This document shows, piece by piece, positions 5,730 to 17,904 of a DNA stretch of 41,971 nt. The notes under the pieces were generated by a model that did not search any database, was not told the origin of the DNA, and saw only the letters and a program-made list of their open reading frames with translations. The stretch's first letter is position 1. Each line of letters begins with the position of its first letter. This DNA comes from Ileibacterium valens (lineage in GTDB: Bacteria > Bacillota_I > Bacilli_A > Erysipelotrichales > Erysipelotrichaceae): NCBI RefSeq assembly GCF_001945525.1, contig NZ_MPJW01000101.1, positions 1 to 41,971 on the forward strand. Direction: 5' to 3'. The translations under genes and the position numbers were made by a program.

Positions 5730-7178
5730 CTATTCGATGTTCGAATATCCCATCAGATACCGATCCACTTCCTTGGCACATTGCTTTCCCTGTTCTAAGG
5801 CCCATACCACTAACGACTGGCCTCGTTTGCAGTCACCGCAGGCAAAGATTTTTGGATTCTGTGTCTGATAGCTTGCTTCTTTCGTAATGATTGTATTTCT
5901 AGGTGTCGTTTCAAGATGAAAGGACTCCTTTAAGGAATCTTCAATTCCGATAAAACCGGCTGCAATCAGCAATAAGTCACACTTCAGGATCTTTTCGGTT
6001 CCTTCGATCGGTTTAAAATCAGGACCTAAGGAAACAATTTCAATCTCATGCAGGCGGCCGTTCTTTTCGATCAGACGTTTAACCGTTGTGGAAAAAATTC
6101 TTGGATCCTTTCCAAATACAGCAGCGGCTTCCTGTTGTCCATAATCGAATTTGGCGACTTTTGGCCATTCAGGCCAAGGGTTATCCGCCGTTCTTTCAAT
6201 TGGAGGCATTGGAGTCATTTCTAACTGAATGACTGACTTGCAATGCTGCCGAAGGGCTGTCCCAACGCAGTCATTTCCAGTATCTCCGCCTCCGACGATA
6301 ACCACATTTTTATTCTTAGCAGATATCAGAGGCTTCTTATTGCTGACTACTGATCGGGTTGCATCCGTAAGGTAATCTACCGCAAACATGACACCCGACA
6401 GGTCCATGCCTTCAAGATTCAGAGATCTGGGTTTTCTGCTGCCTGCCGCCAATACGACCACGTCAAAATCCTGGAACAATTCTTCCTTGCTGATGTCCTT
6501 GCCAGCCTCCACATGACAGGCAAATTGAATTCCTTCATCTTTCATCAATGAAATTCGACGATCAACCACTTTTTTATCGAGTTTCATATTTGGAATTCCG
6601 TACATCAGAAGTCCTCCAGGTCGATCTGCTTTTTCAAAGACCGTAACCTGATGACCTCTTTGGTTGAGATATTGTGCGACGGATAAACCCGCCGGTCCGC
6701 TTCCAATGATCGCAGCTTTTTTACCTGAACGGATTGCAGGAGGCTGCGGTTTCATCCAGCCTCTCGCAAATCCAGTTTCGATAATATAGTTTTCATTGTC
6801 ATGAATCGTGGTTGCGTTTGAATCGATGCCATTAATACAGGCCTTTTCACAAAGAGCAGGGCAAACTCTGCTTGTAAATTCAGGGAAAGGATTGGTCTTA
6901 AGCAGACGTTTTAAAGCATATTCATCGTTACCGGCAACCAGTTCTTCATTCCATTCTGGAATCAGATTATGAAGCGGACAGCCGGTGACCATTCCTTTGA
7001 GCTCTAAAGCCGACTGGCAGAATGGAACGCCGCAGTGCATACAGCGGGCAGCCTGTTCCATTCGTTTTTCGTAAGGCAGGGGGACATGAAACTCGTCAAA
7101 ACTTTCAAGTCTTTTTTCAGGAGAAACGCATGGATTCTCCTGGCGTTCATAAATCAGGAATCCGTTATTTTTAGCCAT
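5730..7178 (-). CDS. gltD: Glutamate synthase, small (beta) subunit
   Basis: This is the NAD(P)H-oxidising flavoprotein subunit of GOGAT, 482 aa, passing electrons through Fe-S clusters to GltB. The N-terminal domain has the cluster cysteines Cys46, 49, 54, 67 (CMHCGVPFC and GCPLHN) and Cys106, 110, 114. The FAD Rossmann motif is GSGPAG (about 159-164), followed by GGLLMYGIPNMKLDK. The pyridine-nucleotide site is VIVGGGDTGNDC, and the C-terminal CGDCKRGQSLVVWAL closes the FAD site. It lies 19 bp after gltB, with AAAGGAG before the ATG, so it forms an operon. It is a paralogue of nfnB at 32218-33603. Confidence 0.96.
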   Translation of the reverse strand: MAKNNGFLIYERQENPCVSPEKRLESFDEFHVPLPYEKRMEQAARCMHCGVPFCQSALELKGMVTGCPLHNLIPEWNEELVAGNDEYALKRLLKTNPFPEFTSRVCPALCEKACINGIDSNATTIHDNENYIIETGFARGWMKPQPPAIRSGKKAAIIGSGPAGLSVAQYLNQRGHQVTVFEKADRPGGLLMYGIPNMKLDKKVVDRRISLMKDEGIQFACHVEAGKDISKEELFQDFDVVVLAAGSRKPRSLNLEGMDLSGVMFAVDYLTDATRSVVSNKKPLISAKNKNVVIVGGGDTGNDCVGTALRQHCKSVIQLEMTPMPPIERTADNPWPEWPKVAKFDYGQQEAAAVFGKDPRIFSTTVKRLIEKNGRLHEIEIVSLGPDFKPIEGTEKILKCDLLLIAAGFIGIEDSLKESFHLETTPRNTIITKEASYQTQNPKIFACGDCKRGQSLVVWALEQGKQCAKEVDRYLMGYSNIE

Positions 7179-7197: not shown

Positions 7198-10100
7198 CTA
7201 TTCCGGATGGGCCATTCTGAAAGCTTTCAGACTGGCTTCAGCAGGGGTAAATCCTTTGTCTTCAAGATCCTTCATATCCTGACGTATTTTCTTGAAGTCA
7301 TTTGGAATAATCTTTTTGAAATGGATCAGGTAATCATCAAAATGATCGAGAATTTCTCTGGCAAGTTCAGAATGAGTTTCCCTGTAATGTTCTTCGAGAA
7401 TTTCATGGAGTTTTTCAATATCCTGTTTGGCTTCTAAAGCTTCCATGGATACAAGTTCCTGGTTGATCGAACGATAAAGAGAATGCTCTACATCTAAAAC
7501 ATAGGCAATTCCACCGCTCATACCAGCCGCGAAGTTTTTCCCGGTTTTACCCAGTATAACGGCATACCCGCCAGTCATATATTCAAGACCATGATCGCCG
7601 CAGCCTTCAACCACTGCAGTCGCTCCGGAATTGCGGACACAGAAACGTTCTCCGGCTTTTCCATTGATAAAGGCTTTTCCATCGGTAGCACCATATAAAG
7701 CTACGTTTCCAATCACGACGTTATCAGCAGCTTTAAATGGAGACCGTGGATCTGGAGCAATTACCAGTTTTCCTCCCGAAAGTCCTTTTCCAAAGTAATC
7801 ATTGGCATCACCGGTGCATTTGAGCGTCAATCCTTTTGGCAAAAAGGCCCCAAAAGACTGACCAGCCCCACCAATACAGTTCACGACATATGTATCTTCT
7901 TTAAGGCTGTTCTTAAAGCGACGAGTAATTTCACTGCCCAGAATGGTTCCTAAAGTACGATCAGTTGAAGAGATCTTAATGGTTGTTTCATATGGTTTTT
8001 TACTGTTGAGATAAGGCATGAATTCGGGCAGCAGCTTAGCCACATCCTGGGTTTCTTCAAGTTTGAAATCGTAAGATTCGGCATCATCATGGCAGATGGG
8101 CTGGATGTTCTTTAGCAGTTCTTCAAGATGCAAAGAGCCTGCTCTGGAATTTACTTCAACGTTTTCACGAATTTTTAACCGATCGGCGTGTCCAATCATT
8201 TCATCGAGCGTTCTATACCCTAAACGAGCCATGATTTCACGCAGTTCTTCAGCGATAAAGAGCATGAAGTTCATTACATTTTCTGCTTTACCCTTAAAGC
8301 GCCCGCGAAGTTCTTCGTTTTGAGTAGCAACACCGAATGGGCAGGTATCCAGGTTGCAGACTCTCATCATCCGGCAGCCCATTGTTACTAATGGAGCGGT
8401 CGCAAATCCAAATTCTTCAGCTCCTAACAAGGCAGCAATCGCTACATCTCGCCCGCTCATCAACTTACCGTCCGTTTCGACAATGACACGTTTTCGAAGT
8501 CCATTCTCGCTTAGTGCCTTGTGAGTCTGAATCAGACCAAGTTCCCATGGAAGACCGGCATTATGAATGGAAGACTGACCGGCAGCTCCGGTTCCTCCAT
8601 CGTATCCTGAAATCAGAATGACCTTGGCTCCTGCCTTGGCTACGCCGCAGGCAACAGTTCCAACACCGTTTTCTGAGCAGAGTTTTACTGAAATTCTGGC
8701 ATCACGGTTTGCGTTCTTGCAATCGTAAATCAGCTGGGCTAAATCTTCAATCGAATAGATATCGTGATGAGGAGGTGGAGAAATCAGAGTCACTCCTGGA
8801 GTTGAACATCTGGTTTTGGCAATCCAGGGATAAACCTTGTTGCCCGGAAGATGTCCGCCTTCACCCGGCTTGGCTCCCTGAGCCATTTTGATCTGAATCT
8901 CATCGGCGCTCACCAGATATTCGCTGGTTACACCAAAACGGCCGGATGCTACCTGTTTGATTGCTGAATTCCTGATGGTTCCAAAACGTTCAGGTCTTTC
9001 TCCGCCTTCACCGGAATTGGATTTACCGCCCAGACGGTTCATCGCTTCTGCCATGGTTTCATGCGCTTCCTGAGAGATGGAACCATAGGACATGGCGCCC
9101 GTTTTAAAGCGTTTGACAATTTCGGAAGCTGGTTCCACTTCTTCTAATGGAATCGAATTCTGACTTTCATCAAAATCAAACAATGCTCTTAAGGTATGAG
9201 GTCTGTTTTCATCATTGACTCTTTGGGTATATTCCTTAAAGAGTTCATAGTTTCCTTCGGCAGTCGCTTTTTGCAGAAGAACAATTGTTTTTGGATCATA
9301 CAGATGGTCTTCCTTGCCTGCGCCGCTTCTGAGTTTGTGATAACCAATCGAATCAAGGGTTGTATTGACTGGAAGTCCAAGTGGATCAAAAGCCCGGTCA
9401 TGATGGTAAATCAAATCTTCTTCAATGTCTTTTAAACCAATGCCTCCGATCTGAGACTGAGTATTGGTGAAGTAAGCATCAATGACATCGCGGTCGATTC
9501 CAATGGCTTCAAAGATCTGAGCTCCCTGATAGGACTGTAATGTAGAGATCCCCATCTTGGCAGCAATCTTTACGATTCCAGAAAGAATGGCTTCATTATA
9601 ATCACGGATGGCAATGGATGGTTCCTTATCAAGCATGTCCTTGTCAATCAGTTCTTCAATACATTCATGAGCCAGGTAAGGATAAATGGCAGTGGCTCCA
9701 AATCCTAACAGGGCTGCAAATTCATGAACGGTTTTAGGTTCACCACTTTCAAGGATGATTGACATGGAAGTCTTTTTCTTGGTCTTTACCAGATGCTGTT
9801 CTAATGCCGAAACCGCAAGCAGGCTTGGAATAGCCATGTGCGATTCATCGACACCTACATCGGAGAGGATCAGGATGTTCTTTCCATTGCGGTAAGCTCT
9901 GTCCGCTTCTAAAAAGAGCTGATCCAGAGCATCTTTTAATGGCATACCCCGGTAGAACAGCAGAGAAATAACCTGAGAATGGAATCCATCGCGGTCCAGG
10001 TTCTTGATCTTATCGAGATCTCTGGCTTCAAGAATCGGATTATTGACTTCTAAAACGGTGCAGTTTCCAGCCTTTTCTTCCAGCAGATTTCCAGAACTTC

Positions 10101-11688
10101 CAATATAAACCGTCGTATCAGTGACAACCTTTTCACGTAAGGAGTCGATTGGAGGGTTCGTTACCTGAGCAAACAGCTGCTTAAAGTAATGAAACAGGGA
10201 AGGGTGAAGTTTCGACAAAGCGGCTAATGGAATATCCGTGCCCATCGAAGCGGTTGGTTCCTTACCAGTTTTTGCCATAGCCAGCAACTGGTCATTAACG
10301 TCTTCAAAGGTATATCCAAATACGCGATAAAGGCGGTCCCGATCTTCCTGAGAATGCATTCTGACTTTTTTATCCGGTGCGGGAAGGTTCTTTAAGTCGA
10401 GAAGCTTTAAAGACAGCCATTCTCCATATGGTTTAGATTTTGCAAAGTTTTCCTTTAATTCTTCATCAGGAATCAGTCTTCCTTCAATCGTATCAATCAA
10501 AAGCATTTTTCCTGGTTCAAGTCTGGATTTTATGACGATATCGGATGGATCAAGATCCAGAACTCCAACTTCAGAGGACAGAATGAATTGTCCGTCTTTT
10601 GTAATGTAATAACGGCTTGGACGCAAACCATTTCGGTCTAATACCGCTCCGCATTTTTCACCATCGGAAAAAAGAATGGCTGCCGGACCATCCCAGGGTT
10701 CCATCATCGTTGCATAGTAATGATAGAAGTCCTGACGGGATTGATCCATTGGAACATGTTTCCATGGTTCAGGAATGGTGATCATCACCGCTTTGGCTAG
10801 GTCCATTCCATTCATCATCAAAAATTCCAGAGAGTTATCGAGCATGGCTGAATCAGAACCAGCGTTATTAATTACAGGAAGAATTTTCTGATATTCATCT
10901 TCGATGAAATCTGAAGTCATGCTTTCTTCACGGGCCAGCATTCGGTTGGCATTTCCGCGGATTGTATTGATTTCTCCATTATGAGCAATCAGGCGGTTTG
11001 GATGAGCCCGCTGCCAGCTAGGAGTTGTATTGGTTGAAAAACGGGAATGGACAATCGCAATCGCAGATTTATAATCCGTATCCTGAAGATCTGCATAGAA
11101 TTTACGCAGCTGATCTACCAGGAACATTCCCTTATAGACAATCGTTCGGCTTGAAAGAGAAGCCACATAGGTATCCGGACAGCTTTTTTCAAATTCCCGG
11201 CGGATCACATAGAGAATTCGATCAAAATCAATTCCGTTTTTTACTCCCTTAGGTTTCTGAACAAAGCCCTGCCAAATGGAAGGCATACAGTCCTGAGCCA
11301 CTTTTCCCAGAATGGATGGGGAAGTTGGAACTTTTCTCCAGCCTAAAAAGGAGCATCCTTCTTTTTCAGTTATCGTTTCAAACAATTTCTTTGCCTGATT
11401 TCTTTCAAGCTCATTTTCAGGAAAAAAGAACATACCCACACCGTAGGTTCCTTTTTCCTGAATGGATATGCCGGCTTCTTTTGCCGCTTTCTGGAAGAAA
11501 TCATCAGAAACGGCTAAAAGAATTCCAACGCCATCACCGACCTGGCCAGTCGCGTCTTTTCCGGCACGGTGTTCGAGTTTTTCCACAATATGCAAAGCTT
11601 TGTCTACCACGTCAAAGCTGGGGGTTCCATCGATTTGTACAACCGCTCCGATCCCGCAGGCATCGTGTTCATTCATGTAATCAAACAT
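7198..11688 (-). CDS. gltB: Glutamate synthase, large (alpha) subunit
   Basis: This 1496-aa enzyme transfers the glutamine amide to 2-oxoglutarate, giving two glutamates. The class II glutaminase domain begins at Cys11 (HDACGIG) after a 10-residue propeptide, shorter than the 22-42 residues I recall for well-studied enzymes. Then come the central domain and the FMN-binding synthase domain with SGEGGERPERFG and GAKPGEGGHLPGNKVYPW. The 3Fe-4S cysteines lie in MGCRMMRVCNLDTCP, and a GXGXG beta-helix forms the C-terminus. AAAGGAG precedes the ATG by about 10 nt. With glnN it forms the GS-GOGAT route. About 190 bp separate it from asnB, so it probably has its own promoter. Confidence 0.97.
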   Translation of the reverse strand: MFDYMNEHDACGIGAVVQIDGTPSFDVVDKALHIVEKLEHRAGKDATGQVGDGVGILLAVSDDFFQKAAKEAGISIQEKGTYGVGMFFFPENELERNQAKKLFETITEKEGCSFLGWRKVPTSPSILGKVAQDCMPSIWQGFVQKPKGVKNGIDFDRILYVIRREFEKSCPDTYVASLSSRTIVYKGMFLVDQLRKFYADLQDTDYKSAIAIVHSRFSTNTTPSWQRAHPNRLIAHNGEINTIRGNANRMLAREESMTSDFIEDEYQKILPVINNAGSDSAMLDNSLEFLMMNGMDLAKAVMITIPEPWKHVPMDQSRQDFYHYYATMMEPWDGPAAILFSDGEKCGAVLDRNGLRPSRYYITKDGQFILSSEVGVLDLDPSDIVIKSRLEPGKMLLIDTIEGRLIPDEELKENFAKSKPYGEWLSLKLLDLKNLPAPDKKVRMHSQEDRDRLYRVFGYTFEDVNDQLLAMAKTGKEPTASMGTDIPLAALSKLHPSLFHYFKQLFAQVTNPPIDSLREKVVTDTTVYIGSSGNLLEEKAGNCTVLEVNNPILEARDLDKIKNLDRDGFHSQVISLLFYRGMPLKDALDQLFLEADRAYRNGKNILILSDVGVDESHMAIPSLLAVSALEQHLVKTKKKTSMSIILESGEPKTVHEFAALLGFGATAIYPYLAHECIEELIDKDMLDKEPSIAIRDYNEAILSGIVKIAAKMGISTLQSYQGAQIFEAIGIDRDVIDAYFTNTQSQIGGIGLKDIEEDLIYHHDRAFDPLGLPVNTTLDSIGYHKLRSGAGKEDHLYDPKTIVLLQKATAEGNYELFKEYTQRVNDENRPHTLRALFDFDESQNSIPLEEVEPASEIVKRFKTGAMSYGSISQEAHETMAEAMNRLGGKSNSGEGGERPERFGTIRNSAIKQVASGRFGVTSEYLVSADEIQIKMAQGAKPGEGGHLPGNKVYPWIAKTRCSTPGVTLISPPPHHDIYSIEDLAQLIYDCKNANRDARISVKLCSENGVGTVACGVAKAGAKVILISGYDGGTGAAGQSSIHNAGLPWELGLIQTHKALSENGLRKRVIVETDGKLMSGRDVAIAALLGAEEFGFATAPLVTMGCRMMRVCNLDTCPFGVATQNEELRGRFKGKAENVMNFMLFIAEELREIMARLGYRTLDEMIGHADRLKIRENVEVNSRAGSLHLEELLKNIQPICHDDAESYDFKLEETQDVAKLLPEFMPYLNSKKPYETTIKISSTDRTLGTILGSEITRRFKNSLKEDTYVVNCIGGAGQSFGAFLPKGLTLKCTGDANDYFGKGLSGGKLVIAPDPRSPFKAADNVVIGNVALYGATDGKAFINGKAGERFCVRNSGATAVVEGCGDHGLEYMTGGYAVILGKTGKNFAAGMSGGIAYVLDVEHSLYRSINQELVSMEALEAKQDIEKLHEILEEHYRETHSELAREILDHFDDYLIHFKKIIPNDFKKIRQDMKDLEDKGFTPAEASLKAFRMAHPE

Positions 11689-11877: not shown

Positions 11878-13467
11878 TCAGATTCCGCTTTCTCCATAGT
11901 TGGAGAGATAACGAGCAGATGGATCATTGACATCACAGCCCTGCCACTCCTTGTTTGGCATCCAGAAATCGACAACCATTCTGGACTGTCCAGGATAATA
12001 CTTTTCAAAGAGATCACGATAGAGCAAGCTTTCCTTAGTAAAAGGAGCGGCATGATCATATAAGGCTTTTCTGGCTTCGAATTCTTCATCCGAATATGTC
12101 CGCTCAGCCAGAGCTTTTAAATCATCAGCCATCGAATGCCCGACGGCATCTGAGAACGCTGCTTTTTCGCGCATCAGAATTTCATAAGGCAGAATCTGAT
12201 CTTTTTCAAAAGCATGACGCAGCAGATATTTGCCTTTGTTATAGGTGTTGAGCTTAAGTTCTGGATCGATGCTCATGACATATTTCACAAAAGCGATATC
12301 ACCAAAGGGAACTCTTGCTTCCATTGAATGAGTCGAAATGCAGCGGTCGGCTCTCAGTACGTCATACATATAAAGCTCTTTAATTCGCTTGGCACTTTCC
12401 CTTTGGAATTCCTGTGCACTTGGCGCATAATCCGTATATTTATAACCAAAGAGCTCATCTGAAATTTCACCAGTCAGTAGAACTCGGACATCTGAGATTT
12501 CACGGATTTTTTTGCAGATTAGATACATACCCATGCTTGCCCGAATTGTGGTGATGTCATAGGTAGCCAGTTCAGCAATCACTTCTTCAAGGGTGTCAAG
12601 AACTTCCTTTTCAGTCATGATCAATTCATGATGATTGCTGCCAATAAAATTGGCCACCTGTTTTGCGTACTTCAGATCGATGGCATCTTCTTCCATACCG
12701 ATGGCAAAAGTTTCAATCGGCTGATCGGATCGACTGGCGGCAATTGCACAGACCAGAGAACTGTCCAGGCCGCCAGAAAGCAGAAAGCCGACTGGAGCAT
12801 CCGAATCAAGCCGCTTATCAATCGCATCGATCAGCAGATCATGAATTTTACTGCAGACTCCTTCTACATCCTTCTGCGCAGCCGGTTCATCTACAACGGA
12901 AAGGTCAAGATAGCAGATAAACTGTCCATCCTGGTAATAATGACCAGGTGGGAAAGGCATGATTGAATCACAGAGTTTCACCAGGTTCTTAGCTTCTGAA
13001 GCAAAGCAGATACTTCCATCTTCTTTCAAATAACCATAAAACAAAGGTCGAATTCCCATTGGGTCTCTGGCTGCGACAAATGATTTCTTGGAATCGTCAT
13101 ACAGGATCAGGGCATATTCAGCATCAAGTTTTTCAAACATGTCTGTTCCATATTCTTCATACATTGGAAGAAGAATTTCACAGTCACTGTCTGACATGAA
13201 AACATAGCCTTTTTCTTCAAGATCTGCTTTCAGCTTTCGAAATCCATAGATCTCGCCATTACAGACCAGAGCATTCTCATTTAAGGTAAATGGCTGCATT
13301 CCAGCTTCATTAAGACCCATGATCGCCAGACGCTGAAATCCTAAGACTCCAGCCTGAGTCTCAAGAAATCTTTCCTGGTCTGGTCCACGGCTTTTTGTAC
13401 AGGACATGGCTTCCTTGGCCATATCCAATGTTGCTGATCGACTCTGAATTCCTAATACTGTACACAT
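11878..13467 (-). CDS. asnB: Asparagine synthase (glutamine-hydrolysing)
   Basis: This 529-aa enzyme converts aspartate to asparagine using glutamine and ATP. The N-terminal class II glutaminase domain has the nucleophile Cys2 immediately after Met (MCTVLGIQS), RGPDQE and NGEIYGF. The C-terminal ATP-pyrophosphatase domain has the P-loop SGGLDSS. The length is close to the E. coli-type AsnB of about 554 aa. The start is fixed by Cys2 and by CGGAGG ahead of it. It stands between glnN and gltBD, which groups glutamine-consuming enzymes with the enzyme that makes glutamine. A TTGACA -35 (13507-13512) and a GTTAAATTAAC palindrome upstream suggest its own regulated promoter. Confidence 0.95.
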   Translation of the reverse strand: MCTVLGIQSRSATLDMAKEAMSCTKSRGPDQERFLETQAGVLGFQRLAIMGLNEAGMQPFTLNENALVCNGEIYGFRKLKADLEEKGYVFMSDSDCEILLPMYEEYGTDMFEKLDAEYALILYDDSKKSFVAARDPMGIRPLFYGYLKEDGSICFASEAKNLVKLCDSIMPFPPGHYYQDGQFICYLDLSVVDEPAAQKDVEGVCSKIHDLLIDAIDKRLDSDAPVGFLLSGGLDSSLVCAIAASRSDQPIETFAIGMEEDAIDLKYAKQVANFIGSNHHELIMTEKEVLDTLEEVIAELATYDITTIRASMGMYLICKKIREISDVRVLLTGEISDELFGYKYTDYAPSAQEFQRESAKRIKELYMYDVLRADRCISTHSMEARVPFGDIAFVKYVMSIDPELKLNTYNKGKYLLRHAFEKDQILPYEILMREKAAFSDAVGHSMADDLKALAERTYSDEEFEARKALYDHAAPFTKESLLYRDLFEKYYPGQSRMVVDFWMPNKEWQGCDVNDPSARYLSNYGESGI

Positions 13468-13606: not shown

Positions 13607-15703
13607 TTACTGAATACCAAAGAGCAGTTTCCCGTAAGTTGGGAATGGCCATTCTTTTGCATCGGTAATGTCTTCTAAGAAGTCACATGGTTCTCTTAAG
13701 GCTTCCATATCAGCCAGAATGTGGTCACGAACGAAGAAGGCTTTTTCTTCAAAATCACTCATGGAGTTCAGTACAGCCACATCGGTTTCGAGCTTTTCAA
13801 GAGTATAGTAAGCTTTTTTCGTCAGCTCGCTGGCATCTTCCAAAGTTCTGGTTTCATAAACGGCTGGCAGGTCTGGCATCGCTTCTTTTTTCGAAAGGAT
13901 GATGTCGGCCAGTTTGCCTTCAAAACCGGCAACTGCAGGCAGAATTTCCTTTTTAGCCATATTGACCATAGTTTTTGCTTCAATATTGATCAGGTTGACG
14001 TATTCTTCCATCAGAATTTCGTAACGGGAGAGAACTTCTTCACGGCTGAATACTCCTAGACGTTCAAACAAGGCAATATTTTCTTCATTCTTAAAATATG
14101 GCAATGCATCTGGAGTGGTTTTCAGATTGAGCAGGCCTCTATTCTGAGCTTCTTTTACCCATTCATCGGAATATCCGTTTCCGTTGAAGATGATTCTGGA
14201 ATGATCCTGGAAGATGCTCTGAATCAATACGTGTAAGGCAGAATCAAAATCAGGAGCGGCTTCAAGGGCATCTGCAATCTCTCTTAAGGAATCCGCAATA
14301 ACTGAGTTCAGGATCACGTTGATTCCAGCAATAGACTGCGCTGAGCCTGGCATACGGAATTCAAATTTGTTTCCAGTAAAGGCAAATGGGGAAGTCCGGT
14401 TGCGGTCTGTCGTATCGATTGGAAGATTTGGCAGTACATCGGTTCCGATGTTCATGAAGATTTTTTCATGGTTGCCGTAATCTTTATCATCACGAATCGC
14501 TTCGATGACTTCTTCAAGCTCATCACCCATGAAGATGGAAATGATTGCAGGAGGTGCTTCGTTAGCGCCTAAACGATGATCGTTTCCAGCAGTTGCCACA
14601 GATAGTCTTAACAGATCCTGATGTTCATCAACTGCCTTAACAATTGCAGCCAGGAACAAAAGGAACTGAATATTTTCATAAGGAGTATCTCCTGGTTCAA
14701 GCAGGTTATCGCCGCTATCCGTAGAAATGGACCAGTTGTTATGTTTTCCGCTTCCATTGATTCCATCAAAAGGCTTTTCATGAAGCAAAGCCACCATGCC
14801 ATGCTTTTTGGCGATTCTCTGAATGAGTTCCATAGCCAGCTGGTTCTGATCAGTGGCGAGGTTTGTTGTTGTAAAGATTGGAGCCATTTCATGCTGAGCT
14901 GGCGCTACTTCGTTATGTTCTGTTTTGGAAGTAACTCCGAGTTTCCATAGTTCTTCATCGAGTTCGGTCATGAACTTCTGAACTCGGCTCTTAATGGTTC
15001 CAAAATAATGGTCTTCCATTTCCTGACCTTTTGGAGCCATGCTGCCAAATAAAGTCCGTCCGGTATAAACCAGATCTTTGCGGTCCCAGAAGTATTTTTC
15101 ATCAACGAGGAAGTATTCCTGTTCTGGTCCGACTGTTGTTTTAACGGAACGAGTCTGGTTGTCTCCAAACAGCCGCAGGATTCTTAAAGCCTGAGTATTG
15201 ATTGCGTCCATGGAGCGAAGCAATGGAGTTTTTTTATCCAGAGCATGTCCTGTATAGGAAGCAAATGCTGTCGGAATGCAAAGAACACCTTCCTTAATAA
15301 ACGCATTGCTGGTAGGATCCCATGCTGTATACCCTCTGGCTTCAAAGGTTGCCCGCAGTCCGCCGCTTGGGAAGGAAGAAGCGTCAGGTTCTCCTTTGAT
15401 CAATTCCTTTCCGGAAAATTCCATCAGGACTTTTCCATTGCCGGCTGGTGTGATAAATGAATCATGCTTTTCAGCGGTAACGCCGGTCATTGGCTGAAAC
15501 CAGTGAGTAAAGTGAGTAACACCTTTTTCAAGAGCCCATACTTTCATAGCGTGAGCTACAGCATCAGCGATCTTTCGGTTTAAGGGGAGACCGTCATCGA
15601 TCGTTTTTCGAAGTTCTTTATAGACATCTTTTGGTAGAGTCTGCCGCATGGTGGAGTCATCGAAGACGTTTTCACCGAAGATTTCCGTAACCTGTTTTTC
15701 CAT
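13607..15703 (-). CDS. glnN: Glutamine synthetase type III
   Basis: This is the ATP-dependent ligase joining ammonia to glutamate, in the large GSIII form (698 aa from the ATG at 15703; classical GSI is about 450). Recognisable GSIII blocks are FPSGGLRATFEARGYTAWDP, NEVAPAQHEMAPIF and GSGKHNNWS, and the catalytic acidic and histidine residues of the GS fold are retained. An upstream ATG at 15751 would add 16 residues. I reject it because AGGAG stands 6 nt before the ATG at 15703 and the longer start would lie inside the U-rich leader end. The gene has a strong promoter and a structured leader, so it is probably controlled by transcription attenuation. It is the active GS of the locus, in contrast to the divergent GS-like gene. 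Confidence 0.95.
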   Translation of the reverse strand: MEKQVTEIFGENVFDDSTMRQTLPKDVYKELRKTIDDGLPLNRKIADAVAHAMKVWALEKGVTHFTHWFQPMTGVTAEKHDSFITPAGNGKVLMEFSGKELIKGEPDASSFPSGGLRATFEARGYTAWDPTSNAFIKEGVLCIPTAFASYTGHALDKKTPLLRSMDAINTQALRILRLFGDNQTRSVKTTVGPEQEYFLVDEKYFWDRKDLVYTGRTLFGSMAPKGQEMEDHYFGTIKSRVQKFMTELDEELWKLGVTSKTEHNEVAPAQHEMAPIFTTTNLATDQNQLAMELIQRIAKKHGMVALLHEKPFDGINGSGKHNNWSISTDSGDNLLEPGDTPYENIQFLLFLAAIVKAVDEHQDLLRLSVATAGNDHRLGANEAPPAIISIFMGDELEEVIEAIRDDKDYGNHEKIFMNIGTDVLPNLPIDTTDRNRTSPFAFTGNKFEFRMPGSAQSIAGINVILNSVIADSLREIADALEAAPDFDSALHVLIQSIFQDHSRIIFNGNGYSDEWVKEAQNRGLLNLKTTPDALPYFKNEENIALFERLGVFSREEVLSRYEILMEEYVNLINIEAKTMVNMAKKEILPAVAGFEGKLADIILSKKEAMPDLPAVYETRTLEDASELTKKAYYTLEKLETDVAVLNSMSDFEEKAFFVRDHILADMEALREPCDFLEDITDAKEWPFPTYGKLLFGIQ

Positions 15704-15725
15704 ATCGTTCTCCTGTGTATTCAAT

Positions 15726-15812
15726 AAAAAAGGCAAAGACACTGAAATCAAAGCATTTCAGTCATCTCGTTTATTCGAGATGCTGTATGCCTGTTTTCTG
15801 GCGTCCTTGCCA
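15726..15812 (-). ncRNA. Structured 5' leader of glnN (candidate attenuator / ANTAR target)
   Basis: On the minus strand the closing stem GGCAAGGAC (15811-15803) pairs with GUCUUUGCC (15740-15732) over 9 bp with one G-U, and runs directly into U6 (15731-15726). It encloses three abutting hairpins: GCC/GGC (15802-15789), CAUCUCG/CGAGAUG with a 6-nt loop (15782-15763), and ACUGAAAU/AUUUCAGU with a 6-nt loop (15762-15741). An alternative fold uses UGGC-AAGGAC-GCCA (15812-15799). Its hexaloop has A at position 1 and G at position 4, as in known ANTAR targets, and it would break the closing stem. The second hexaloop, AAUAAA, has A1 but not G4. Folding was by eye. It matches no riboswitch class I know. 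Confidence 0.65.
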
Positions 15813-15824
15813 TTTCATGGTTGT

Positions 15825-15853
15825 AGATTACTCGATTGATTTTGCTCTGTCAA
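15825..15853 (-). promoter_or_regulatory. glnN promoter
   Basis: On the minus strand there is a consensus TTGACA -35 (15853-15848), a 17-bp spacer and a TAATCT -10 (15830-15825). Transcription would start near 15818-15821, only a few bases before the structured leader. The leader is therefore the very 5' end of the mRNA. Confidence 0.75.
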
Positions 15854-15923
15854 CAGGAACGAAACAATTTTTCGAAAATTTTCAGAAAAATAGACTTTTT
15901 CAGTTTCATACCATATTTTAGAA

Positions 15924-15970
15924 ATGTTATAACATCTAACCTGTTAATTGTTGAAAAAGCATGTTAATTG
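15924..15970. promoter_or_regulatory. Candidate operator cluster between glnN and the GS-like gene
   Basis: A perfect 12-bp palindrome, ATGTTATAACAT (15924-15935), is followed by two identical 9-mers, TGTTAATTG, at 15942-15950 and 15962-15970. Their starts are exactly 20 bp apart (two helical turns). They sit in the divergent promoter region and could bind a nitrogen regulator. I cannot match them exactly to the GlnR/TnrA consensus (TGTNA-N7-TNACA). Confidence 0.45.
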
Positions 15971-16108
15971 AGTGAAGCAATATCGATCATTAATGGGATA
16001 TGCATATAAATTGTACTGACATTTCAAAAAAAGCAGCAAAACATATCACTTTTGAAAAGTCTTTTACAGCGATTTCCATTTTATGAATAGCTGACCTTAA
16101 TTTTCATT

Positions 16109-16114
16109 TATACT
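16109..16114 (+). promoter_or_regulatory. Putative -10 of the GS-like/ANTAR operon
   Basis: TATACT stands 26 bp before the ATG at 16141 in an AT-rich context. No good -35 is found 16-19 bp upstream, so the promoter may depend on an activator binding the repeats further upstream. Confidence 0.4.
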
Positions 16115-16140
16115 GAGCCATAAGAAAGTTGAGGACGATT

Positions 16141-17328
16141 ATGTATTTTAAAGATGAGGTTCTCACGTTTATTGAAGAAGAAAACGTTCAATTCATCAAA
16201 CTGCTTTTTTTTGACGTGTTTGGCCGGCAGAAAAATGTATCCATTCTTCCAAGCAGAATGTCTCGCACTTTCGAAAAGGGAGTAACGATCGATGCGACTG
16301 CAGTTACAGGTTTTAATAACCCGGATCATTCTGATCTTGTATTAAAGCCTGACCCATCCACGATGACCGTTCTGCCATGGCGATCGATTGATGGCTGCGT
16401 CATCTATATGATCTGTGATCTTTATTATCCAGATGGAAGAAGATTTGATTACGATATTCGCTATATCCTGCAAAAGGCAGTAAAAAAGGCGCAGAAGGTC
16501 GGGCTGACCATTGAAATGGCCGCAAAGTTTGAATTCTACCTGTTAAAGCTGGATGAACTGGGAGAAAAGACGAATATTCCAATGGATCAGGCAGGATATA
16601 TGGATGCCGCTCCACTTGATCGGGCTGAAAATATCCGCAGAGACATCTGTCTGACTTTAAATGAGATGGGAATTGAACCCCATAAATCCTACCATCAGTA
16701 CGGAAAAGGCCAGAATGAAGTGGATTTTCATTTCAATACGGCCCTCAATGCGGCTGATGAAGCAGCGATCTTTAAATGGGTTGTTCGTTCTACCGCTCAC
16801 TTAAATGGCTTATGGGCTGATTTTTCCCCGCGCCCTTTCAAAAATCAGCCTGGCAGCGGACTGCATATTCAAATGCGCTTCTTTGATACTGAAGATGAAC
16901 GGATCAAAGAGCAGTTCATGGCTGGAATTCTGAAGTATATCCGACAGATGACTCTGTTTCTGAATCCAAATAAGCAATCCTATGACCGTTTTGGCAAGGA
17001 TCAGGCTCCTTTATTTATCGACTGGTCCGATCAGACAAGATTTACCTTGCTGAGAATCCCAGCATTATCTCCGGATATTATGGAAGTCCGCTCACCGGAT
17101 TGCACCTGCAGTGTGTATCTGGCTTTTGCATTACTGATTGAAGCGGGTCTGAAGGGAATTGAAGATCAGCTGGAACTGATTGAACCAGGTGCCTGCAAAA
17201 GACAGGATTCAATGGATATTCTTCCAACGAGTCTTGAAGAAGCAAAAGCATTAGCCATTGAATCAGATTTCATTGCAAATGTATTACCAGACCATATTAT
17301 CAATACATATATAAAGAAAGATCAGTGA
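16141..17328 (+). CDS. Glutamine synthetase homologue, probable pseudoenzyme
   Basis: This is a GSI-fold protein of 395 aa (functional GSI is about 445), starting at the ATG after GAGGACGATT. Aligned by eye to B. subtilis GlnA it keeps Glu131, Glu193 (GQNEVD), His242 (GSGLH), Arg283, Arg305 (RIPA), Glu315 and Arg317. It has Lys129 where the first metal-ligand Glu should be (AKFEFY for EPEFF), Gln186 for the Glu of HHEV, and Gln288 for the catalytic flap Glu (DQAP for YEAP). The Arg-rich strand after RIPA is shortened, and the C-terminal tail is missing. Loss of metal ligands and flap Glu argues against synthetase activity, while substrate-binding elements partly remain. It is coupled to an ANTAR gene 6 bp downstream. 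I infer a glutamine- or nitrogen-sensing partner; an enzyme acting on another amine is the alternative. Confidence 0.8.
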   Translation: MYFKDEVLTFIEEENVQFIKLLFFDVFGRQKNVSILPSRMSRTFEKGVTIDATAVTGFNNPDHSDLVLKPDPSTMTVLPWRSIDGCVIYMICDLYYPDGRRFDYDIRYILQKAVKKAQKVGLTIEMAAKFEFYLLKLDELGEKTNIPMDQAGYMDAAPLDRAENIRRDICLTLNEMGIEPHKSYHQYGKGQNEVDFHFNTALNAADEAAIFKWVVRSTAHLNGLWADFSPRPFKNQPGSGLHIQMRFFDTEDERIKEQFMAGILKYIRQMTLFLNPNKQSYDRFGKDQAPLFIDWSDQTRFTLLRIPALSPDIMEVRSPDCTCSVYLAFALLIEAGLKGIEDQLELIEPGACKRQDSMDILPTSLEEAKALAIESDFIANVLPDHIINTYIKKDQ

Positions 17329-17334
17329 TTTTTC

Positions 17335-17904
17335 ATGAGAAAAAAGAAAGTGATTTGGCTCTCTTCAAATTCTGAGACGAAAGGTCAGTATTTCCCATCA
17401 TCAAAATATGATTTGAGCCTTGAAAAATCTTCTTCAAAACTGAAGCAAAAATTAAATGATGAAAAATTTGATCTGATTATGATTTCAGGTCCATTAAGTG
17501 GAGAAAGCTGTATCCAGATTGCCAACGAAGTTGCTGCAGTTTTCCAGATTCCAGTTTTATTAGCTGTTCCAGGTGAGCTGTATGATCAGGCTTCCTATCA
17601 ATGTCAGGAACATCGAGTCTTTGTGATCCTCTCTCCGCTTCAGAAGCTCATGACTATGCAGGCCATAGCTCTGATTGAAAAATTCTCGGATCAGATTCGC
17701 CTTCTTGAAAAACAGATTCAAAAGGAGCAGCAGAAATTCAAGGATGAAAAAATGATCAATCTGTGCAAGCTCAAATTGATCGAAACATATCATTGGAGTG
17801 AAGAAAAAGCCCATTCCTTTATCGGTAAAAAGGCGATGGATCATTCCTGCACCAAAGTTTACGTAGCAAAAGTTCTGCTTAACCGGCTTCAGGCGAATAC
17901 CTGA
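17335..17904 (+). CDS. ANTAR-domain RNA-binding antiterminator with pseudo-receiver (NitR/AmiR-like)
   Basis: This 189-aa protein has a receiver-like domain at about 1-112, a coiled coil at about 113-140 (LEKQIQKEQQKFKDE) and a C-terminal ANTAR three-helix domain at about 136-187 (DEKMINLCKLKLIE, WSEEKAHSFIGKKAMD, VYVAKVLL). The phospho-acceptor position in FDLIMISG is Ser51, not Asp, so phosphorylation is unlikely. AmiR has the same architecture and is controlled by protein contact with its sensor AmiC. ANTAR proteins bind pairs of hexaloop hairpins and prevent transcription termination. NitR homologues are known beside glnA in clostridia. The 6-bp gap from the GS-like gene implies co-expression. 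The nearest plausible RNA target is the glnN leader. Confidence 0.85.
   Translation: MRKKKVIWLSSNSETKGQYFPSSKYDLSLEKSSSKLKQKLNDEKFDLIMISGPLSGESCIQIANEVAAVFQIPVLLAVPGELYDQASYQCQEHRVFVILSPLQKLMTMQAIALIEKFSDQIRLLEKQIQKEQQKFKDEKMINLCKLKLIETYHWSEEKAHSFIGKKAMDHSCTKVYVAKVLLNRLQANT

What the first reader, a model, noticed from the sequence alone, without database searches (positions are those of the whole stretch)
15704..17904. Possible new nitrogen-control module: pseudo-glutamine synthetase + ANTAR antiterminator facing a structured leader of the active GS
Seen: a GSI homologue lacking three key glutamates, 6 bp ahead of an ANTAR protein without a receiver Asp, divergent from a GSIII gene whose leader looks like an attenuator with a U6 end. 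Known: AmiR is controlled by binding its sensor AmiC; NitR-type ANTAR proteins sit beside glnA in clostridia; GS itself acts as a sensor for GlnR/TnrA in Bacillus. Inferred: the dead GS binds glutamine or another nitrogen signal and holds or releases the ANTAR protein, which prevents termination in the glnN leader. A catalytically dead GS as the dedicated sensor of an RNA-binding antiterminator would be new to my knowledge.
Basis: partly seen in the sequence, partly recalled or inferred. Interest (0 to 1): 0.87.

Follow-up and report, generated by a model that had tools for sequence, protein, structure and literature searches.

The report
Dead glutamine synthetase paired with antiterminator
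A widespread gene pair in gut and other anaerobic bacteria couples a glutamine synthetase that has lost its catalytic residue to an RNA-binding antiterminator, and a matching RNA switch sits in front of the working glutamine synthetase and other nitrogen genes, which suggests a nitrogen-control system that uses a dead enzyme as its sensor.

Summary
An intact GSI homologue without Glu129, Glu212 and Glu327 lies 6 nt ahead of a pseudo-receiver ANTAR gene and diverges from GSIII (glnN), whose leader is an attenuator. The pair is a large family: of 80 relatives from other genomes, 79 have the ANTAR gene directly downstream and 75 have lost the catalytic Glu327, mostly to Lys. The tree shows one main loss and several later ones.

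The glnN leader carries a hairpin closed by C-G with loop AANGNN, the known ANTAR target, inside the 5' arm of the terminator. It lies ahead of 22/22 close GSIII orthologues in the family, including copies unlinked to the pair, and 0/20 GSIII genes in genomes without ANTAR. In the 80 wider loci there are 109 such attenuators (3 in shuffles), ahead of GSIII, GDH, the pair itself, GOGAT, AsnB, PyrG, GuaA and Amt. Each has one hexaloop at the transcript start, unlike the classic two-hexaloop ANTAR target.

ANTAR action on the leader is well supported. The pseudo-GS as its sensor is likely but untested. Glutamine as ligand is doubtful, because both residues that hold it in Bacillus GS are lost. 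Precedents: NitR, GS-GlnR, AmiC-AmiR.

The parts
16141..17328 (+). Pseudo-glutamine synthetase (GSI fold, 395 aa); E129K, E212Q, E327Q, N264P, S53A
17335..17904 (+). ANTAR antiterminator with pseudo-receiver (189 aa), 6 nt after the GS-like stop codon
17885..17914 (+). Intrinsic terminator closing the two-gene operon
   Evidence: sequence
15848..15853 (-). -35 box TTGACA of the glnN promoter (17-nt spacer)
15825..15830 (-). -10 box TAATCT of the glnN promoter; hairpin starts 12 nt downstream
15799..15812 (-). ANTAR-type hairpin UGGC-AAGGAC-GCCA (C-G closing pair, A1, A2, G4), the putative antiterminator
15726..15811 (-). Attenuator: the terminator stem uses the hairpin's 5' arm and loop (GGCAAGGAC with GUCUUUGCC), then U6
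13607..15703 (-). glnN, type III glutamine synthetase; the regulated target
11878..13467 (-). asnB, asparagine synthase; neighbour conserved with glnN in many genomes, may be co-regulated
7198..11688 (-). gltB, glutamate synthase large subunit; conserved neighbour
5730..7178 (-). gltD, glutamate synthase small subunit

Best explanation
The two genes form a nitrogen-status regulator. The ANTAR protein is the effector. It binds the hexaloop hairpin that emerges about 10 nt into the glnN transcript. That holds the hairpin closed, keeps its 5' arm out of the terminator and lets RNA polymerase read into glnN. Without active ANTAR protein the terminator, which is far more stable, forms and glnN is off. 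The adjacent dead GS no longer makes glutamine. It is kept as the ANTAR protein's dedicated partner, which holds or activates it according to a nitrogen or energy ligand bound in the remnant active site, as AmiC does for AmiR. By analogy with NitR, the on state is expected under nitrogen limitation. Shown here by sequence: pseudo-GS, pairing, leader element, and their co-occurrence. Inferred: RNA binding, antitermination, the GS-ANTAR contact, the ligand and the sign.
For: Pairing: 79 of the 80 best relatives have ANTAR directly downstream, and so do most loci of the same family. Catalytic loss: E327 absent in 75/80, N264 in 80/80 and R62 in nearly all; one 61-member clade with 100/100 support lacks E327 throughout, with further independent losses in sister lines. 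Every family genome with a pseudo-GS also has GSIII. Leader: C-G closing pair, A1 and G4, as in ANTAR targets of EutV (PMC3369931) and NasR SELEX (PMC7496416); covarying pairs in both the hairpin and the competing terminator; 22/22 close GSIII orthologues against 0/20 in ANTAR-negative genomes, including unlinked cases G092, G166 and G146. Among 227 C-G closed hexaloop attenuators scanned without regard to the other loop bases, 93 are AAnG and the next class is 8. ANTAR residues that match EutV RNA contacts Lys149, Glu160 and Met172 are invariant in the family, and Tyr164 is His as in AmiR (PMC8934654).
Against: No test of a GS-ANTAR contact was possible. The known glutamine contacts of feedback-inhibited GS are gone, so the ligand is unknown. 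The window's own GS-like protein has also lost two metal-site glutamates that most relatives keep, so it may be a degenerating copy. EutV and NasR antiterminate through two hexaloops, and NasR binds one less well (PMC3369931, PMC7496416), so one hexaloop may not suffice. G115 and G168 have the leader but no detected ANTAR gene (genomes 78% and 66% complete).
Confidence: 0.62

Rival explanations
1. The ANTAR protein controls the leaders, but the dead GS does not sense for it. The dead GS acts on the working GS instead, as an inhibitory or scaffolding partner of GSIII, and is merely co-expressed.
For: Both are GS-fold proteins in the same cell, and GSIII is present in every pseudo-GS genome of the family.
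Against: The pseudo-GS follows ANTAR, not GSIII: 79/80 pairs with ANTAR, while GSIII is adjacent in only some loci and in others the neighbours are GdhA or GOGAT genes. GSI and GSIII differ in oligomer architecture (own knowledge).
Confidence: 0.13
2. The GS-like protein is still an enzyme with another amine acceptor, and the ANTAR gene is only its neighbour and regulator.
For: Most family members keep D50, metal ligands E129, E131, E212, E220, H269, E357 and R321, R339, R359, so they may still bind ATP and an acidic substrate. GS relatives with other acceptors exist, such as glutamate-methylamine ligase and gamma-glutamylputrescine synthetase.
Against: E327 and N264 are lost and the E-flap is one residue shorter across the family. 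The window copy has also lost E129 and E212. No pathway gene was seen to travel with the pair apart from ammonium and glutamine genes.
Confidence: 0.12
3. The leader is a riboswitch or an ordinary terminator that works without the ANTAR protein.
For: It folds very stably, and terminators are common in the region.
Against: Loop bases A1, A2 and G4 are strongly enriched where a plain terminator would not need them; the element is absent from GSIII leaders of ANTAR-negative genomes; no Rfam family matches.
Confidence: 0.08

Closest known systems
NitR with glnA and GOGAT genes in Clostridium saccharobutylicum (ANTAR antiterminator; reviewed in PMC6316151; similar Clo1313_2030 in C. thermocellum, PMC4676874)
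   Same: ANTAR protein in a nitrogen-assimilation cluster that induces GS/GOGAT genes by antitermination under nitrogen limitation
   Different: Its GS is, to my knowledge, an active enzyme; here the partner is a pseudoenzyme and the targets include GSIII, GDH, AsnB, PyrG and GuaA. The leader element of NitR could not be read in the held library.
AmiC-AmiR of Pseudomonas and NasS-NasT
   Same: ANTAR protein beside a gene for a non-kinase ligand-sensing partner; AmiR also has a pseudo-receiver
   Different: AmiC and NasS are not GS-like; here the proposed sensor is a dead enzyme of the pathway it controls
GS-GlnR and GS-TnrA of Bacillus (PMC9249791)
   Same: A GS controls a regulator by direct binding and reports nitrogen status
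   Different: That GS is active and holds glutamine through Glu304 and Arg62, both lost here; GlnR and TnrA bind DNA, whereas the ANTAR protein binds RNA
ANTAR dual-hexaloop leaders of eut and nasF (PMC3369931, PMC8934654)
   Same: Hexaloop with A1 and G4, C-G closing pair (NasR SELEX), mutually exclusive with an intrinsic terminator
   Different: One hexaloop per terminator at the very start of the transcript; in eut a recruitment hairpin P1 precedes P2. Tandem copies here each have their own terminator.

Membership tests
ANTAR antiterminator proteins (PF03861) | C-terminal ANTAR three-helix domain after a coiled coil | tested here: met
   27.2-28.8 bits against cut-off 27.3; the family profile finds Rv1626, AmiR and EutV; model TM 0.78 to RNA-bound EutV
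ANTAR antiterminator proteins (PF03861) | Key RNA-contact residues of EutV | tested here: met
   Lys149, Glu160 and Met172 equivalents invariant; Tyr164 equivalent is His as in AmiR; Arg168 equivalent not kept
Phosphorylatable response regulators | Acidic pair and phospho-acceptor Asp | tested here: not met
   Absent in the window protein; the acidic pair is absent across the aligned relatives
Classic ANTAR target RNA | Hexaloop with C-G closing pair, A1 and G4, overlapping a terminator | tested here: met
Classic ANTAR target RNA | Two hexaloop hairpins P1 and P2 | tested here: not met
   Second hexaloop within 50 nt in 10 of 109 against 6 expected; the -10 box, most often 8-10 nt upstream, leaves no room for P1
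Active type I glutamine synthetase | Catalytic Glu327, glutamate-site Asn264, metal ligands | tested here: not met
   E327Q, N264P, E129K, E212Q in the window protein; GS activity itself not assayed
NitR/glnA system of clostridia | ANTAR gene next to a GSI gene and GOGAT, controlling their leaders | tested here: inconclusive
   Gene arrangement met; no comparison with the NitR leader or protein was possible
AmiC-AmiR type control | Sensor partner binds the pseudo-receiver ANTAR protein and releases it on ligand | not testable with these tools
   No complex prediction or binding assay available

The most novel reading that the evidence does not exclude
A major group of Firmicutes and some Treponema controls its whole ammonium and glutamine economy (GS, GDH, GOGAT, AsnB, Amt, GuaA, PyrG) by antitermination at single-hexaloop RNA switches, through an ANTAR protein whose sensor is a GS that was stripped of catalysis and kept only to report nitrogen status.
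Probability: 0.5. Interest if true: 0.9.

Novelty: new variant of a known kind. Interest (0 to 1): 0.78.

Why it matters
Nitrogen control in many gut Firmicutes is poorly known. This gives a testable candidate: a regulator pair, a defined RNA element and a target list. It also bears on an open question from the EutV-RNA structure paper (PMC8934654), which redefined the minimal ANTAR site as one hexaloop and asked whether such single sites are used in genomes; here they occur by the dozen ahead of nitrogen genes. Genes of this family in hundreds of genomes, which look like glutamine synthetases, are probably not enzymes, which affects metabolic models.

Tried and rejected
Rfam, strict and permissive: no match. 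A second A1/G4 hexaloop in the window leader: the two inner loops are AAUAAA and GCUUUG and lack G4 (sequence). A loose attenuator scan was rejected as too noisy (217 hits against 124 in shuffles) and replaced by the stricter ones. My first leader alignment was chosen with AA-G in the loop, so loop invariance is partly circular; the unselected tests are the 22/22 orthologue count and the last test. Further regulon members in the window's own genome: apart from the glnN leader, other model hits are weak and mostly look like ordinary terminators. A GlnR-like C-terminal tail on the ANTAR protein that could enter the GS site was not seen.

Full report
What is there. The window holds a divergent locus. 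Rightward are a GSI-like gene (16141-17328) and, 6 nt on, an ANTAR gene (17335-17904), closed by a terminator at 17885. Leftward are glnN (GSIII), asnB, gltB and gltD. The genome is 2.74 Mb in 291 contigs, and this is its only ANTAR hit and its only match to the GS-like protein at E <= 1e-10. Its GSIII is also a single copy.

The GS is dead by sequence. Aligned to a solved GSI, it lacks Glu129 and Glu212 (metal ligands) and Glu327 (the flap glutamate that takes part in catalysis), and also Ser53 and Asn264. It keeps Asp50, Glu131, Glu220, His269, Arg321, Arg339, Glu357 and Arg359. The roles of these residues are established GS knowledge, not tested here.

The dead GS is the rule, not a local accident. 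Of the 80 best, 79 have ANTAR directly downstream, 75 lack Glu327 (71 Lys), and all 80 lack Asn264. Arg62 is also gone and the flap is one residue shorter. Hosts named in the records include Lachnospiraceae, Oscillospiraceae, Christensenellaceae, Sedimentibacter and Treponema. In the tree a 61-row clade (100/100) lacks Glu327 throughout, and sister lines lost it again. Full-length GSI proteins with every catalytic residue, next to an ANTAR gene and in many cases next to gltB and gltD, occur mainly in one genus of the same family. The simplest history is that an active GSI was paired with ANTAR first, and catalysis was lost afterwards while the pairing stayed; the root of the tree is not fixed, so this is inference. 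Every family genome with the pseudo-GS also has GSIII, so glutamine can still be made.

The ANTAR protein. Its receiver lacks the acidic pair and the Asp. The model (pLDDT 94) matches EutV bound to RNA at TM 0.78 and AmiR at 0.63. EutV contacts Lys149, Glu160 and Met172 (PMC8934654) are invariant across the relatives, and Tyr164 is His, as in AmiR.

The leader. The glnN promoter (TTGACA-17-TAATCT) is followed 12 nt on by UGGC-AAGGAC-GCCA, whose 5' arm and loop are the 5' arm of a -38 kcal/mol terminator with U6; the hairpin alone is worth -4.4 kcal/mol. So termination should be the default and a protein is needed to hold the hairpin. In 22 aligned leaders both structures covary: hairpin 3 of 4 pairs changed on both sides, terminator 6 of 10. 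The loop rule (C-G closing pair, A1, G4) is the one found for NasR by SELEX (PMC7496416), and A1 and G4 are needed by EutV in vivo (PMC3369931).

Link between pair and leader. GSIII orthologues at least about 67% identical to the window's over their full length number 22 in the family sample; all 22 have the element, and 20 of those genomes have a detected ANTAR gene (the other two are 66% and 78% complete). In G092 the gene pair is about 15 kb away, and in G166 and G146 it is on another contig, so the link is not only by neighbourhood. None of 20 GSIII genes from ANTAR-negative genomes has it, while GSIII genes of similar identity in ANTAR-positive G160, G139, G024 and G164 do. Second GSIII copies in ANTAR-positive genomes mostly lack it. 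Kinship is a confounder, since leader and GSIII subfamily are inherited together; the ANTAR-positive distant GSIII genes reduce but do not remove it.

A wide regulon. In the 80 loci from other genomes, 109 hexaloop attenuators stand in 63 loci against 3 in shuffles. Without selecting loop bases, 93 of 227 C-G closed hexaloop attenuators are AAnG and the next class is 8. Downstream genes that could be named: GSIII 30, GDH 13, the pseudo-GS itself 11, GOGAT-like 4, AsnB 4, PyrG 2, GuaA 1, Amt 1. These are the genes that fix ammonium or spend glutamine.

One hexaloop, not two. A -10 box lies, most often 8-10 nt, before the stem in 75 of 109 cases (18 expected), so no hairpin can precede it, and a second hexaloop downstream is near chance (10 against 6). 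Some leaders carry two complete attenuators in tandem. The EutV-RNA paper redefined the minimal site as one hexaloop and called for a search for such sites (PMC8934654); these look like them. NasR binds one hairpin at about 12 uM (PMC7496416), so whether one suffices for antitermination is the weak point.

How it probably works. ANTAR binding to the emerging hairpin blocks the terminator (inferred, about 0.85). The pseudo-GS is its ligand-responsive partner (inferred, about 0.65), like AmiC for AmiR. Glutamine is a poor guess for the ligand, because Bacillus-type GS holds it with Glu304 and Arg62 (PMC9249791) and both are missing. Most members keep the ATP and metal residues, so nucleotide, glutamate or 2-oxoglutarate are as likely; the window copy has lost part of the metal site too. 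NitR works under nitrogen limitation (PMC6316151), which gives the expected sign.

Novelty. ANTAR control of GS/GOGAT (NitR) and GS as a sensor (GlnR, TnrA) are known separately. I found no paper in the held library on a pseudo-GS paired with ANTAR or on single-hexaloop attenuators of nitrogen genes. The library lacks most subscription journals, including the 2007 NitR paper cited in PMC6316151, so absence there is weak evidence. I file it as a new variant of a known kind.

Noticed in passing
L082:5331-7539, L088:5372-7544, L085:381-2533, L099:6683-8851: In some relatives without the pseudo-GS, an ANTAR pseudo-receiver gene lies directly before pyrG (CTP synthase, a glutamine amidotransferase), overlapping it in three of the four and 12 nt before it in L099. 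L088 has a hexaloop attenuator just ahead of the ANTAR gene. A second ANTAR-glutamine-enzyme pairing.
   Followed up: partly
L226:8029, L270:7872: Hexaloop attenuators ahead of pyrG downstream of the GS-like/ANTAR pair, so CTP synthesis appears to be in the same regulon.
   Followed up: partly
L192, L197, L222, L225, L227, L233, L242, L247, L257: Two complete hexaloop attenuators in tandem, mostly ahead of GSIII or GDH; possible steeper or two-step control.
   Followed up: no
L053, L054, L083 upstream of GSIII: A short conserved ORF (MND-GD...FHEFL) lies between promoter and attenuator; possible leader peptide.
   Followed up: no
L057, L063, L067, L068, L069, L070, L084, L089, L093, L094, L095: Full-length GSI with every catalytic residue next to an ANTAR gene, mostly beside gltB or gltD: the likely ancestral, still active form of the pair.
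   Followed up: partly
window 13579-13560 and 11843-11810 (-): Strong terminator-like hairpins follow glnN and asnB, so the glnN leader may not control asnB, gltB and gltD in this genome.
   Followed up: no
L109:7151-8137 and 10265: In an order-level relative the GS-like gene looks decayed (328 aa, most site residues lost) with no ANTAR beside it, yet the GSIII leader keeps the hexaloop attenuator.
   Followed up: no
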